NCBI GenBank assembly: GCA_022821495.1
Contig: JAJEDN010000025.1
Location: forward strand, 1-64,000
DNA: 64,000 bases
DNA from: Candidatus Poribacteria bacterium
Lineage (GTDB): Bacteria; Poribacteria; WGA-4E; WGA-3G
Direction of reading: 5' to 3'
The position numbers and the translations under genes were made by a program. The notes under the pieces were generated by a model. It was not told the origin of the DNA. It ran no database searches and saw only the letters and a list, made by a program, of their open reading frames with translations. This document shows, in pieces, positions 36,015-57,629 of this stretch. Position 1 is the stretch's first letter; every line of letters begins with the position of its first letter.

Positions 36015-37466
36015 TCATATCTCTTTGCACTGGAATGAGATGTGCGCTGTCGCGAACAGCACAACGAAAAAGAGCAACAACAGTATCACATCCAAGATCG
36101 CGCCTTTGAAGGCATCTCCTAAACGTACGCTGTCTTGAAATTTCGGGATACTCTCAAAGGAGACGAGTTTATCGGACATACCTTCCCTAACAAAAGGAAC
36201 GTGCGGACTGTCGGGGTCAGAGCGGTCAGCAGAGATGAGAAAATCGTTGAATACATCGGCGTAACGCTCGACGTTTTTCAAGAAATCCAGATGTCTTTGG
36301 AACCCAGTTCCTGCAAGGGATTCAACGGCGTACTGCACAATCGCTGTCGGTGAGATACGATTGAACTCTCTGGCAATCTGGATCTGGTCTATTTGTGCGT
36401 TTAAGTACGCTCTGTGCAATCTCGCGCCTTCTCTCGCCTCCGCGTTTAGAAACTCAGCCCAGAGCAGTGTTGCCGGTGTCGGTGGACGTTCACGGGCTGG
36501 GGCTGCGTCTTCCAATCCGCGGGCTATGTAGCGTTCCTTGAGTCCACTACGTCCGAAATATACCGGACTCGGACCCCGGCGGATTGATGGCTGGTTCAGT
36601 CCACTCATAACTGTCCCAAGCATTGACGGCACGAGGATCACCCCAATTACCCATATCAGCAGCAGAATTACAAGGCTTGTTGAGGCGTTGTTAACGAGTG
36701 TTGATATGAGAAACCCTAAAGCGATAAAGACAGCGATATACATTAAACCCACAACGAAAATACTGCCGATTCTGCTCCATTCTTGGGCATTGAGTTGAAG
36801 CGTTCCAGAGAGATAGAGTAACAGGAGATTAACCAGTACACCACTCATAAAAACAGCACCAAGACTCATAAGACTGCTTAAGAATTTACCAGTGAGTACT
36901 GTCCGACGCGCAACAGCATTAGATAATGTCAATCGAAGGGTGCCATGTTCCACTTCACCAGAAATCGCGTCAAATGTGAAAACGAGCGCGAGAAAACTAA
37001 GGACATTAGAGATAATGAGAATCCAGTCGATTTTTAAGAATACTGGGAACATATCTTTCGCTTTTATGGATGGAAATCCGCTATATTTCAGCCGCCAGAT
37101 ACCGGAGACGTTATAAGTGTTGCCGTCTATTATGTCCGCGTTCCATCCCCATCCCGCGCGTTTCCCTGATGCAAATTCGGGCAGATTATTTTCACTGCCG
37201 TGCGCACAGAAAGCGAGTGGTGAAGGTTTCTTATAAAGTTCACCGGGACCATTCAAAACGAGTTTGTAGAGATTATTACTATTCTGTTCAAGTCTCACCA
37301 AGTATGCTGAAACCTGCTGTCCATATTCCGCTTGTTGTGTTTTATATTCGTCAATGTGGCCCACAGCGTTGACAAGCATTAAAAAAACAGTGAGCAGCAT
37401 CGCGAGTGCGAAACGGAGGCTATTGACTTGCTCAAACAATTCTCGTTTCACAATATGCCAAAGCAT
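36015..37466 (-). CDS. ABC-2 type permease, DUF3526-like (second of pair)
   Basis: A 483-residue membrane protein; ATG 37466 is preceded on its strand by AGGAGGTCTGAG. One helix at residues 20-37 (FALAMLLTVFLMLVNAVG), a large extracytoplasmic stretch, helices from about 150 (ILIISNVLSFLALVFTFDAI), the ABC-2 motif GEVEHGTLRLTLSNAVARRT, then four helices, another long loop (residues about 295-445) and a final helix at the C-terminus. Layout as in Gld/NosY-type permeases. It begins 1 nt after the stop of a paralogous permease. No ATPase gene is adjacent. Confidence 0.85.
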   Translation of the reverse strand: MLWHIVKRELFEQVNSLRFALAMLLTVFLMLVNAVGHIDEYKTQQAEYGQQVSAYLVRLEQNSNNLYKLVLNGPGELYKKPSPLAFCAHGSENNLPEFASGKRAGWGWNADIIDGNTYNVSGIWRLKYSGFPSIKAKDMFPVFLKIDWILIISNVLSFLALVFTFDAISGEVEHGTLRLTLSNAVARRTVLTGKFLSSLMSLGAVFMSGVLVNLLLLYLSGTLQLNAQEWSRIGSIFVVGLMYIAVFIALGFLISTLVNNASTSLVILLLIWVIGVILVPSMLGTVMSGLNQPSIRRGPSPVYFGRSGLKERYIARGLEDAAPARERPPTPATLLWAEFLNAEAREGARLHRAYLNAQIDQIQIAREFNRISPTAIVQYAVESLAGTGFQRHLDFLKNVERYADVFNDFLISADRSDPDSPHVPFVREGMSDKLVSFESIPKFQDSVRLGDAFKGAILDVILLLLFFVVLFATAHISFQCKEI

Positions 37467-37467
37467 C

Positions 37468-38943
37468 TCAGACCTCCTGCCGACTGACAACCGCGAAGGT
37501 AATCATAAGTAGCATTGGATTGAAAAGGAAAAGTAGAAATAGGTCGCGGAGTGCGCGGTTACTGGCATCTTCAAACACACTCGGTGACTGATAAAAGAAT
37601 CGTGGAATATCATCCCATCGGACGGCTCCTTTATCACTCGCGAACCATTGGCGGGAACTGAACGCCTTTTTATCGTAAAAATAGTCCAATATTGTTTCCC
37701 TATACTGTCGTCCGGCTTTAAAAAAGTCTTCCACGCTCGCAAGCCCCGTCCCTGCCCACGCTTCTGTTGAGAGATGATATAAGCCTGTGGGTGAAAATCG
37801 GAGTGCGTTTCGGGCGATACTGGATTTACGAATATAGGTTTCGGAAAAGGCTTTCTCGCGTATCCGCCAGACTGTGCCAGCGGTCCGAACCCGTCCAGAT
37901 GTTAGTTCTTGGAAGTAGGCTTTAACCGTTGGGACATGGATCTCCGACGCGTCTGGGATGAACGTAATATTTTTTTGTAGATGCGTGTAACTGGAACTCC
38001 CGCTACCTGACTTGCTACCCCTTAGTAATGGTGGGTTCTTAAACGGATCCGCAGGGGCTTCTTCAGCCCAATAGAATTGTTCCAAGATCTGGTCAATTGC
38101 TTGATCTGCTTGCTTTACTTTCGTCTCTGTATCAATGAAGCGGTTGACGAGGAACAGGCTCACATTCGGATAGAGCAGTGTCAACGTCACCCAGATAAAC
38201 ATTGACACGATTAATGATGTTGCCGGGCGGTGAATCACACTGGAGATAAACAATCCGATGAGATAGAACGTAGAGGTATAGATGACTGTTGTGAGAAAGA
38301 TACCGCCAATCCGGAGGAATCCGTCCGCCCCATAATGGATAGCATTAGATTGTAATTGCAGCAGCAAAGTTAACAAGAAACTCATCAGTAATGGGAGGGT
38401 AAGGCATAGCATGGCACCCAAATACTTTGACATTACAATCAGACCGCGTCCGACAGGATTGACAAGGATGAGGCGTAACGTACCGTTCTCGCGATCGCCA
38501 GCGATTGCATCGTACGCAAAAACCAGAGCGAGAAGGCTGAAAAGGATTTGGAAGACAGATACCAGATCTATATCGGCGAGCAGATAGCGAAAAGGATTAC
38601 TGAAACCTGTGTTACGGCTAACATTACCCCATAAGAAAGGGACCTCTCCAATTTTGATTTGGAGAGAGTTCTTCGCGCGCTTGTCAAGTCCTTGATTAAA
38701 AACACTCAATGGATTCGCCGCTCTGTCGAGACGCGGCATGAAAGATGAATACGTTTTTCCGCTAAAGTTCCCTTCTTGGTGTTTTTGGAAATCCTCATTG
38801 TAACTCGCGAGTCTCCGCTCATAATTGTCCGTCAAGACGATGCTCCCTGCCAGCACAAGTGCCATACTCGCGATAACCGCAACAAGGAAGCGGAACGTCA
38901 TTAAATTCATTAAGAGTTCATGGCGAATCAGCGTCCAAAGCAT
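37468..38943 (-). CDS. ABC-2 type permease, DUF3526-like (first of pair)
   Basis: A 491-residue paralogue of the following gene: MLWTLIRHELLMNLMTFRFL with a first helix (about 17-36), extracytoplasmic loop, helices from VSVFQILFSLLALVFAYDAI, the motif GDRENGTLRLILVNPVGRGL, four further helices and a terminal helix. The shared GxxENGTLRL motif is the usual contact with the ABC ATPase. AAAGGAG precedes the ATG at 38943. The pair probably forms a heterodimeric exporter whose ATPase is encoded elsewhere. Confidence 0.85.
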   Translation of the reverse strand: MLWTLIRHELLMNLMTFRFLVAVIASMALVLAGSIVLTDNYERRLASYNEDFQKHQEGNFSGKTYSSFMPRLDRAANPLSVFNQGLDKRAKNSLQIKIGEVPFLWGNVSRNTGFSNPFRYLLADIDLVSVFQILFSLLALVFAYDAIAGDRENGTLRLILVNPVGRGLIVMSKYLGAMLCLTLPLLMSFLLTLLLQLQSNAIHYGADGFLRIGGIFLTTVIYTSTFYLIGLFISSVIHRPATSLIVSMFIWVTLTLLYPNVSLFLVNRFIDTETKVKQADQAIDQILEQFYWAEEAPADPFKNPPLLRGSKSGSGSSSYTHLQKNITFIPDASEIHVPTVKAYFQELTSGRVRTAGTVWRIREKAFSETYIRKSSIARNALRFSPTGLYHLSTEAWAGTGLASVEDFFKAGRQYRETILDYFYDKKAFSSRQWFASDKGAVRWDDIPRFFYQSPSVFEDASNRALRDLFLLFLFNPMLLMITFAVVSRQEV

Positions 38944-39102: not shown

Positions 39103-40554
39103 ATGAAAACGGAAACGCTAATCTCCTCAGCGACGCACACACCCGGTGCAATCCTTTTAATCTCCTGCTACGAGCTTGGACACCGACCCGCAGGACTTAC
39201 GCGTCCGCTCCGCGCACTCGAGATAGCAGGATTTACACCTGATACAATTGATATTGCTGTTGAGGCGCTGGATGTTGAAAAAGTCAAACGTGCGCGGTTT
39301 ATTGGGATCTCTGTCCCGATGCATACGGCACTGCGGCTCGGTGTTCATCTTCTACAACGAATTCGAGAGATTAACCCGGATGCCTCTATATGTATGTACG
39401 GACTTTACGCTACGCTCAATGCAGATTATCTGCTCTCGCACGGTGTCGATTTCTGCCTTCCGTCTTCAGTAACCCCCCAACCCCCCTTATCAGGGGGGCA
39501 GGATAGGGACACATCAATGCAACTTGTCGGGTTGGTGCAATCTTTTGTGGACGGAAAGCAGGTTGAGACGCAGAAGACTGGTTTTCGTACTGCGAAACTG
39601 CCGCCGTTAGAGACATACGCCCAGTTTGAAGACAACGGCGAGGTGCGGACTGTCGGTTATACAGAGACGACACACGGATGCAAGCATCTCTGCACACACT
39701 GTCCTATTCCGCCTGTTTACAAAGGTAAGTTTTTTGCTGTGAATAGGGAGACAGTGCTGAATGAGATTGAGGAACAAGTGGTTGAAGGTGCGACACACAT
39801 AACATTCGGTGATCCAGATTTCCTCAACGGACCGATGCACGGACTCCGCATCCTCCGTGCAATGCACGAAGCATATCCGAATCTGACCTTTGACTTTACA
39901 ACCAAGATTGAACATATTCTTAAACACAGAAAACATTTCCCGGAATTCGCACAGCTCGGATGTCGGTTTATCATCTCTGCTGTGGAATCGCTGAGTGAGA
40001 CGGTCCTAACGATTTTGGAGAAACACCACACACGGGGCGATGTGGAAATAGCACTTGACATTGTTCACGGTGCCGGGATTGCCCTGCGTCCAACATGGGT
40101 GCCATTTACGCCATGGACAACTTTAGACGACTATCTTGAGATTCTGCGGTTTGTTGATACGCATCACCTTATCTATCACGTAGATCCAGTGCAGTATGCT
40201 GTTCGATTATTAATTCCACCGGGTTCGTATCTACTTAATCGTCCTGAGACAATAGCACTTTCACTTACACTTGACGAAACCTCTTTCAGTTACACATGGA
40301 CACACCCGGACGCACGAATGGATGAACTTCACAAAACGGTCAGTGCCCTCGTTGAAAACGACGCTCGAGCCGGTGTAAACACACTGGAGACCTTTTATCG
40401 GATATGGACACTTGCTGCGGATATACACGGTAGCAGGCACACGCCGTTGGATTTCCATAGCAAAGACGCACATCAACCCGCACCACGGATTACCGAAGCA
40501 TGGTTCTGCTGAGCGGAACCCACCGAAGGGCAGTTTGCCCCGATACACGTTTAA
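39103..40554 (+). CDS. CUAEP-tail radical SAM selenoprotein (in-frame UGA at 40510)
   Basis: A radical SAM protein that appears to contain selenocysteine. The frame runs 469 residues to TGC-TGA (TGA 40510-40512) and then continues GCG-GAA-CCC, so the product reads Cys-Sec470-Ala-Glu-Pro and 11 more residues to TAA at 40552-40554 (483 residues). CUAEP/CCAEP tails define a known radical SAM family. Order: cobalamin-binding-like Rossmann domain (residues 15-118, ILLISCYELGHRPAGLTRPL; no DxHxxG motif), linker with a repeat-derived insert (123-133), radical SAM core with C193-x3-C197-x2-C200 in HGCKHLCTHCPIP, and FGDPDFLNG as in B12-type enzymes. Substrate unknown. A DUF169 gene follows 53 nt later. 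Read conventionally the gene would look complete but lack its tail. Confidence 0.85.
39469..39502. repeat. CCCCCTTATCAGGGGG repeat inserted in the radical SAM gene
   Basis: GTAACCCCCCAACCCCCCTT followed by ATCAGGGGGGCA matches the complement of 57537-57568 at most positions. It adds VTPQPPLSGGQ in frame in the linker between the B12-like and radical SAM domains. Confidence 0.7.
40510..40541 (+). promoter_or_regulatory. Candidate bacterial SECIS element
   Basis: Directly after the UGA (40510-40512) the mRNA can form GGGCA (40528-40532), loop GUU (40533-40535), UGCCC (40536-40540). The apical loop begins with G and lies 20 nt after the UGA, inside the 16-37 nt window known for bacterial SECIS elements. 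The hairpin is within the coding extension and would be bound by SelB. Stem length (5 bp) is short, so this part is less certain than the CUAEP tail. Confidence 0.6.
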
Positions 40555-40607: not shown

Positions 40608-41294
40608 ATGTCAGAACAAATTCAACAATTACTCAATTTAGAAATCGCTCCTGTCGCGCTAACTTTTCATGATGCGAAACCGGAGGGTGTTTCTCGGATA
40701 GAAAAAGCTGAAGCCTCGGGTTGCACCTATTGGCGACGTGCAGCAGCAGGCAAAACCTTCTATACCGAAGCCGCTGATCATTACAACTGTCCCATCGGAT
40801 GTTATACACACAACATTGAATTGCCAGACGCACAGATGGAGGAACTCGAAAACACGCTTGGATTGATGGCGGAACTCGGCTACATCGCTATGGAAGAAGT
40901 CCCCGGCATTCCACGACAGGAAAAATCGTTCAAGAATGCTGTCTATTCCCCGTTAGCAGATGCGACTGACACACCTAATGTTGTCATCATTTCTGGCACG
41001 CCGAGACAGATGATGCTCTTGATGGAAGCCGCGACCGCTGCCGGCATCGGTAGTGAGAACAGCGTTATGGGGCGACCGACGTGTGCCGTTGTCCCGGCTG
41101 TCATACAAGGCGGACGGAGTGTGAGCAGCTTGGGATGTATCGGCAACCGCGTCTATACTGCACTCTCCGACGACGACTTCTACTTCGCCTTCCCCGGTGA
41201 ACATATTAACGCGCTTGTTGAAAAGTTAGAGACGATTGTGAACGCGAATCAGGCATTAGCGGAATATCATCAGCAACGTCAAACGGAGATTTAA
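40608..41294 (+). CDS. DUF169 domain protein
   Basis: A 228-residue DUF169 protein of unknown biochemical role; ATG 40608 with AAGGAAA upstream. Typical opening IQQLLNLEIAPVALTFHDAK. Conserved cysteines suggest a metal or cofactor site: C39 in SGCTYWRRAAAGKTFYT, C61 and C65 in YNCPIGCYTHNI, and later RPTCAVVPAV and SLGCIGNRVY. It is the direct downstream neighbour of the CUAEP radical SAM selenoprotein and is likely its functional partner (inference from position). Confidence 0.88.
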   Translation: MSEQIQQLLNLEIAPVALTFHDAKPEGVSRIEKAEASGCTYWRRAAAGKTFYTEAADHYNCPIGCYTHNIELPDAQMEELENTLGLMAELGYIAMEEVPGIPRQEKSFKNAVYSPLADATDTPNVVIISGTPRQMMLLMEAATAAGIGSENSVMGRPTCAVVPAVIQGGRSVSSLGCIGNRVYTALSDDDFYFAFPGEHINALVEKLETIVNANQALAEYHQQRQTEI

Positions 41295-57514: not shown

Positions 57515-57629
57515 GGCTTACGCATTTTCTCTTAAAGTCCCCCTGATAAGGGGGATTTAGGGGGTTAAATAACTTAAACATCAACTTTTCGGTGAAATAT
57601 ATTGCTTTTGGACACAATTTGCGTAAGTC
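57515..57629. repeat. 115-bp MITE-like element with CTTACGCA ends
   Basis: Left end GGCTTACGCATTT (57515-57527) and the complement of the right end GACTTACGCAAAT agree at about 11 of 13 positions. The centre holds CCCCCTGATAAGGGGG followed by ATTTAGGGGGTTA (57539-57570), the same core that is inserted in the radical SAM gene at 39469-39502. A TAACTGAT-type fragment (GGTTATCAGTTAG) lies just outside. No transposase is encoded. Confidence 0.65.

What the first reader, a model, noticed from the sequence alone, without database searches (positions are those of the whole stretch)
39103..40554. Hidden selenoprotein: radical SAM gene reads through UGA into a CUAEP tail
Seen: TGC-TGA-GCG-GAA-CCC at 40507-40521 gives Cys-Sec-Ala-Glu-Pro, in frame with a 469-residue radical SAM protein (C193-x3-C197-x2-C200), then 11 codons to TAA. 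Known: CUAEP or CCAEP tails mark a radical SAM family in which U is selenocysteine. Inference: UGA at 40510 is selenocysteine 470 and a conventional gene call cuts the functional end. The organism would need selA, selB, selC and selD.
Basis: partly seen in the sequence, partly recalled or inferred. Interest (0 to 1): 0.93.

Follow-up and report, generated by a model that had tools for sequence, protein, structure and literature searches.

The report
Radical SAM selenoprotein with CUAEP tail
A sponge-symbiont-type bacterium (Poribacteria) reads one UGA 'stop' codon as selenocysteine near the end of a radical enzyme; the protein family is already catalogued, but its unknown job now has testable partner genes and a link to the enzymes that make an arsenic antibiotic.

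Summary
UGA 40510-40512 interrupts a radical SAM gene whose extended product (483 aa) scores 618.7 bits against NCBIfam NF040546, 'CUAEP/CCAEP-tail radical SAM (seleno)protein' (cut-off 500). At this codon 80 homologues from several phyla carry only UGA (57) or Cys (23). After the UGA, codons evolve as protein up to the real stop and drift beyond it. A 5-bp hairpin with an AGUU loop is kept with compensatory changes in the Sec forms (97% paired) and lost in the Cys forms (44%, as shuffled). selA occurs in 16/18 non-poribacterial Sec genomes and 1/23 Cys genomes. The window's genome has selA, selB and tRNA-Sec; selD falls off a contig end. So this is a real selenoprotein, but a member of a known family. 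Not found in the papers I could search: the family is a relative of ArsL (arsinothricin synthesis, about 35% identity, also ending in a Cys-Cys tail); in 59 genomes it is co-inherited with a DUF169 gene (39/39 versus 1/20), even where unlinked; and across the class with an ATP-grasp amino-acid ligase (49/50 versus 5/33). The chemistry is unproven.

The parts
39103..40554 (+). CUAEP-tail radical SAM selenoprotein CDS, 483 aa with Sec470, including TAA stop
   Evidence: (NF040546 618.7 bits, cut-off 500)
39679..39702 (+). C193-x3-C197-x2-C200, site of the radical SAM [4Fe-4S] cluster
   Evidence: invariant; PF04055 43.5 bits, over its cut-off
40507..40521 (+). CUAEP motif; Sec codon UGA at 40510-40512
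40527..40541 (+). Bacterial SECIS hairpin: stem GGGC/GCCC (40528-40531 with 40537-40540), loop AGUUU with its G 20 nt after the UGA; the outer fifth pair is A-C here
   Evidence: Sec forms, covariation; absent in Cys forms
40608..41294 (+). DUF169 (PF02596) protein, 228 aa, co-inherited partner; invariant C39, H58, C61, C159, C177
39479..39498 (.). Palindromic repeat (AACCCCCCTTATCAGGGGGG) in frame inside the radical SAM gene, near an insert of about 14 residues
   Evidence: 368 copies genome-wide with up to 2 mismatches, 0 for the reversed pattern

Best explanation
Shown by comparison: UGA 40510-40512 is translated as selenocysteine 470, directed by a bacterial SECIS hairpin about 15 nt downstream and served by SelA, SelB and tRNA-Sec of the same genome; the true stop is TAA 40552-40554. 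The protein is a radical SAM enzyme of the NF040546 family, most closely related among named families to ArsL. Inferred: the Cys469-Sec470 pair on a mobile C-terminal tail acts with the SAM/[4Fe-4S] site as a soft thiol/selenol ligand, holding or reducing a thiophilic (metalloid- or sulfur/selenium-type) acceptor while the radical transfers a SAM-derived fragment (3-amino-3-carboxypropyl, as in ArsL) onto it; Cys replaces Sec in lineages that lack the Sec machinery. The product is probably handled with DUF169 and coupled to an amino acid by the ATP-grasp ligase. The confidence given is for Sec decoding; for the ArsL-like transfer chemistry I put 0.35, for DUF169 and the ligase working in the same pathway 0.75.
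For: Family. UGA or Cys only, 57 versus 23, in 80 loci; every full or near-full class match over the cut-off holds exactly one TGA. In 29 distinct sequences of the nearest poribacterial group, the mainly third-position variation continues through codon +13 after the UGA and conservation collapses after the stop at +14. SECIS: 97.1% of cells paired, 27 double-changed cells, 0 of 500 shuffles, and every slid register is worse; Cys forms are at shuffle level. selA in 16/18 versus 1/23 genomes, Fisher 2.3e-8. Own genome: selA 607.9 bits, selB 343.8 bits, tRNA-Sec 77.5 bits with anticodon TCA beside selB. ArsL kinship: 308.6 bits over 412 of 423 model positions, about 35% identity, C-terminal RCCLKC. 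Partners.
Against: selD is missing from this 94.7%-complete assembly. No direct protein evidence. The phylogeny is not removed from the selA and hairpin contrasts: Cys forms are mostly Nitrospirota, and the tree needs only 3 to 5 changes. For the chemistry: no ars genes recognised in the neighbourhoods looked at, the ArsL cut-off is not reached, and the model gives low confidence to the last residues, so the tail cannot be placed at the active site.
Confidence: 0.96

Rival explanations
1. UGA is an ordinary stop; the protein ends at Cys469 and the downstream similarity is chance or a decayed tail.
For: Ordinary gene callers stop here, and a public record of a homologue does so.
Against: Third-position substitution pattern after the UGA in 29 sequences; 23 homologues from other phyla encode Cys and continue through AEP; hairpin covariation only in Sec forms.
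Confidence: 0.02
2. UGA is read as another residue (Trp or Cys by suppression or code change) rather than Sec.
For: Homologues with UGC/UGU exist, so Cys would be tolerated.
Against: A SECIS-type hairpin and the selA association would have no reason; other long frames of the window end in TGA with no conserved continuation; no homologue in the set has Trp there.
Confidence: 0.02
3. It is a selenoprotein, but Cys-Sec is a redox pair (selenenylsulfide) that reduces the enzyme's own substrate or cluster, and the reaction is not an ArsL-like fragment transfer.
For: Adjacent Cys-Sec or Cys-Cys pairs are commonly redox active (general knowledge); Fe-S maturation genes (SufS, SufU, HesB type, Nfu) flank the gene in Ignavibacteria and Nfu in Acidobacteria.
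Against: The closest named relative, ArsL, has a C-terminal CCLKC and is published as transferring the 3-amino-3-carboxypropyl group to As(III) (PMC8552651).
Confidence: 0.35
4. It is a cobalamin-dependent radical SAM methyltransferase or related enzyme, with Sec as a structural or auxiliary ligand.
For: N-terminal Rossmann-like region with a weak B12-binding hit; best folds include OxsB and TsrM with cobalamin.
Against: The B12-binding hit (23.2 bits) is below its cut-off (32.1); the top fold hit AprD4 and the MiaB hits are radical SAM enzymes not known to use B12 in catalysis (general knowledge).
Confidence: 0.2

Closest known systems
NCBIfam NF040546, CUAEP/CCAEP-tail radical SAM (seleno)protein
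   Same: Equivalog-level score, radical SAM motif, C-terminal C-U-A-E-P tail.
   Different: No difference that sets it apart; the window gene carries an in-frame palindromic repeat near an extra stretch of about 14 residues, shared with L080.
ArsL, NF040542 (RCCLKC-tail; arsinothricin biosynthesis)
   Same: Aligned from residue 17 to 418, about 35% identity, CxxxCxxC in the same place, adjacent cysteines at the C-terminus; some Bacilli arsL-type clusters also hold an ATP-grasp ligase.
   Different: Below the ArsL cut-off (308.6 of 450); longer C-terminal part; Sec; no arsM, arsQ or ars resistance genes recognised nearby; the CUAEP-linked ligase is only 22-28% identical to the Alicyclobacillus one.
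AprD4, OxsB, TsrM, MiaB (solved structures)
   Same: Fold of N-terminal Rossmann domain plus radical SAM core.
   Different: 11-16% identity in the structure matches; none is known to carry a Cys-Sec tail.
TIGR04167 radical SAM selenoprotein and TrsS (NF045646), listed in PMC13188914
   Same: Radical SAM proteins with Sec.
   Different: Separate families; neither appears among the scored matches of this protein. The review text names neither NF040546 nor a CUAEP tail.

Membership tests
NF040546 CUAEP/CCAEP-tail radical SAM (seleno)protein | Score over curated cut-off (500 bits) | tested here: met
   618.7 bits, 1-467 of 468
NF040546 CUAEP/CCAEP-tail radical SAM (seleno)protein | C-terminal C[UC]AEP | tested here: met
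Bacterial selenoprotein | In-frame UGA with Cys homologues at the same position | tested here: met
   57 UGA, 23 Cys, no other residue in 80 loci
Bacterial selenoprotein | SECIS hairpin just after the UGA with G in a small apical loop (PMC1088965) | tested here: met
   absent in Cys forms; description of the feature
Bacterial selenoprotein | selA, selB and tRNA-Sec in the genome | tested here: met
Bacterial selenoprotein | selD in the genome | tested here: inconclusive
   Not in G000; over cut-off in 74 of 83 class genomes; contig C31 ends just beyond pyrE, where relative G082 has selD next
Bacterial selenoprotein | Selenium in the protein | not testable with these tools
   Needs mass spectrometry or 75Se labelling
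ArsL (NF040542) | Score over cut-off (450 bits) | tested here: not met
   308.6 bits
ArsL (NF040542) | RCCLKC C-terminus | tested here: not met
   CUAEP plus 10 residues instead
ArsL (NF040542) | arsQ/arsM neighbours | tested here: not met
   Neighbours are DUF169, SDR, ADH, ATP-grasp, Nfu; no ars genes recognised
Cobalamin-dependent radical SAM (B12-binding PF02310) | B12-binding domain over Pfam cut-off | tested here: not met
   23.2 bits, cut-off 32.1; cofactor itself not testable

The most novel reading that the evidence does not exclude
CUAEP radical SAM, DUF169 and the ATP-grasp ligase (with Nfu/Suf helpers in some phyla) form an undescribed biosynthetic pathway, spread over several bacterial phyla, that uses a Cys-Sec tail to hold a metalloid, sulfur or selenium acceptor, attaches a SAM-derived amino-acid fragment to it and ligates the product to an amino acid: a second branch of natural-product chemistry beside arsinothricin.
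Probability: 0.25. Interest if true: 0.8.

Novelty: new member of a known kind. Interest (0 to 1): 0.5.

Why it matters
The selenoprotein family is already named, so the UGA reading alone adds a well-supported member. The value lies in what follows: an enzyme family with no assigned function gains an evolutionary relative of known chemistry (ArsL), two co-inherited partner genes and a cultured organism with a UGA-containing copy (Thermomicrobium roseum), so its function becomes directly testable. If the partners act together, Poribacteria, Planctomycetes, Nitrospira and Rokubacteria may make a small molecule nobody has looked for.

Tried and rejected
ars-type neighbourhood in Poribacteria: none recognised. 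Literature on CUAEP, CCAEP or NF040546: none in the library; the two Haft papers cited for related families are not held. DUF169 by fold: a confident model (pLDDT 92.4) but no PDB match below E = 0.05, so its role stays open. Rfam on the window at gathering thresholds: nothing; the short SECIS had to be tested by alignment. A stem with UGA in its loop was set aside: it uses the conserved codons of WFC-UGA-AEP and was not tested further. Single-sequence folding of the hairpin alone is weak (z about -1.4 to -2.1); the covariation is what carries the claim. The L009 'selD' hit (95.6 bits, cut-off 125) was set aside: it lies below the cut-off, and relatives carry such a copy besides true selD.

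Full report
What is there. The ORF 39103-40512 ends at TGA 40510, and the frame continues for 13 codons to TAA 40552. The window is contig C19 of a 133-contig genome of 5.37 Mb, 94.7% complete; its nearest relatives are Candidatus Poribacteria.

Family. The protein scores 618.7 bits against NF040546, NCBI's equivalog model for CUAEP/CCAEP-tail radical SAM (seleno)proteins, cut-off 500; without the tail it scores 598.0. The next family is ArsL (NF040542) at 308.6 bits, below its cut-off of 450. Thus the family, and the idea that U is Sec, were already catalogued; no paper in the searched library names it.

Is UGA read? Four lines say yes. (1) In the class, 48 of 83 genomes hold a match over the cut-off, and every full or near-full match has exactly one in-frame TGA; 30 of 30 tails read WFCUAEPT. 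In a wider scan, 80 loci from Poribacteria, Planctomycetota, Rokubacteria/NC10, Tectomicrobia, Acidobacteria, Gemmatimonadota, Nitrospirota and Ignavibacteria/Bacteroidetes show TGA in 57 and TGC/TGT in 23 at this codon. The ratio is not unbiased, because one of the two search patterns was a Cys form. (2) In 29 distinct sequences of the nearest poribacterial group, codons +1 to +13 mostly keep the residue while the third base varies, and conservation collapses after the stop at +14. (3) A hairpin of five pairs (positions 18-22 with 28-32 counted from the U of UGA) with an AGUU loop is kept in the Sec forms: 97.1% of cells pair, 27 cells are changed on both sides, no shuffle of 500 reaches either value, and all slid registers are worse. 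In the Cys forms the same positions pair in 43.5%, equal to shuffles, although the glutamine encoded across the stem and loop is invariant in the protein alignment. The loop G lies 20 nt after the UGA; a small apical loop with a guanosine is the published mark of bacterial SECIS elements (PMC1088965). (4) selA is over cut-off in 16 of 18 non-poribacterial genomes with the Sec form and 1 of 23 with the Cys form (Fisher 2.3e-8). The lines are not free of phylogeny: Cys forms are mostly Nitrospirota, and a tree needs 3 to 5 Sec/Cys changes.

Machinery in this genome. selA C23 (607.9 bits), selB C115 (343.8 bits), tRNA-Sec C115 beside selB (77.5 bits, anticodon TCA). selD was not found. In 74 of 83 class genomes selD is present over cut-off and carries an in-frame TGA itself. 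In G082 it lies next to pyrE; in G000 pyrE lies at the extreme end of contig C31, so the missing gene is best explained by the assembly break. In G082, whose genome is a single contig, the radical SAM gene and selD are on the same contig.

Public annotation. The Thermomicrobium roseum homologue (49% identity) is named CUAEP/CCAEP-tail radical SAM protein, yet its CDS ends ...SWFC at TGA; the DNA continues GCG GAG CCG, followed by a GGACCC-GUC-GGGUCC hairpin (hairpin read by eye).

What it may do. ArsL-type proteins from plasmids are about 35% identical, share the CxxxCxxC and end in CCLKC. ArsL is published as transferring the 3-amino-3-carboxypropyl group of SAM to As(III) (PMC8552651). AlphaFold gives a confident model (pLDDT 85.0) whose fold matches AprD4, OxsB, MiaB and TsrM. 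I infer that Cys469-Sec470, on a mobile tail (low confidence in the model), is a soft ligand or reductant for a thiophilic acceptor. This is inference; acceptor and product are unknown.

Partners. A DUF169 gene lies just downstream (40608-41294). On the same strand near the radical SAM gene it is found in Poribacteria, Planctomycetota and Nitrospirota. In the 59 genomes of family f1, 39 of 39 with the radical SAM gene (two of them as fragments) have it, against 1 of 20 without; the exception, G053, has its DUF169 gene 58 bases from a contig end, where the upstream gene would be cut off. In G043 the two genes sit on different contigs, far from the ends of the one that holds the radical SAM gene, so co-inheritance is not only linkage. 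G065, G030 and G045, which lack the radical SAM gene, have only short DUF169 remnants. An ATP-grasp ligase with an L-amino-acid-ligase C-terminal domain (PF18603) lies downstream in Nitrospirota, Rokubacteria, Acidobacteria and Ignavibacteria and occurs unlinked in Poribacteria: 49 of 50 genomes with the radical SAM gene, 5 of 33 without. The window's genome has it intact on C95 (434 aa). Nfu, HesB-type and Suf genes flank some copies. Fisher values ignore relatedness, and the counts treat genome absence as real although several genomes are incomplete.

Verdict. The finding is right and well supported, in a family already known. The module and the ArsL link are the parts worth a specialist's time.

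Noticed in passing
window 39479-39498 (and 57538-57557, - strand): A palindromic repeat AACCCCCCTTATCAGGGGGG, 368 copies in the genome with up to 2 mismatches and none of the reversed control; one copy sits in frame inside the radical SAM gene near about 14 extra residues.
   Followed up: partly
L174:7944-9380 (Thermomicrobium roseum, NC_011961.1): Record annotates the family name but stops the CDS at the Sec codon, losing the AEP tail.
   Followed up: yes
L052-L059 and other class genomes: selD over cut-off carries one in-frame TGA in 74 of 83 class genomes: the selenophosphate synthetase is itself a selenoprotein.
   Followed up: no
window 40608-41294: DUF169 has invariant C39, H58, C61, C159 and C177, which suggests a metal or Fe-S site; a confident model finds no significant PDB match.
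   Followed up: partly
L176:430-1662 and L177:1-700: ATP-grasp ligase genes sit near arsL-type genes on Bacilli plasmids, suggesting ligated forms of arsinothricin-like products.
   Followed up: partly
window 36015-38943 (- strand): Two successive 491-aa ABC-type permease genes, conserved as a pair in several relatives at this place.
   Followed up: no
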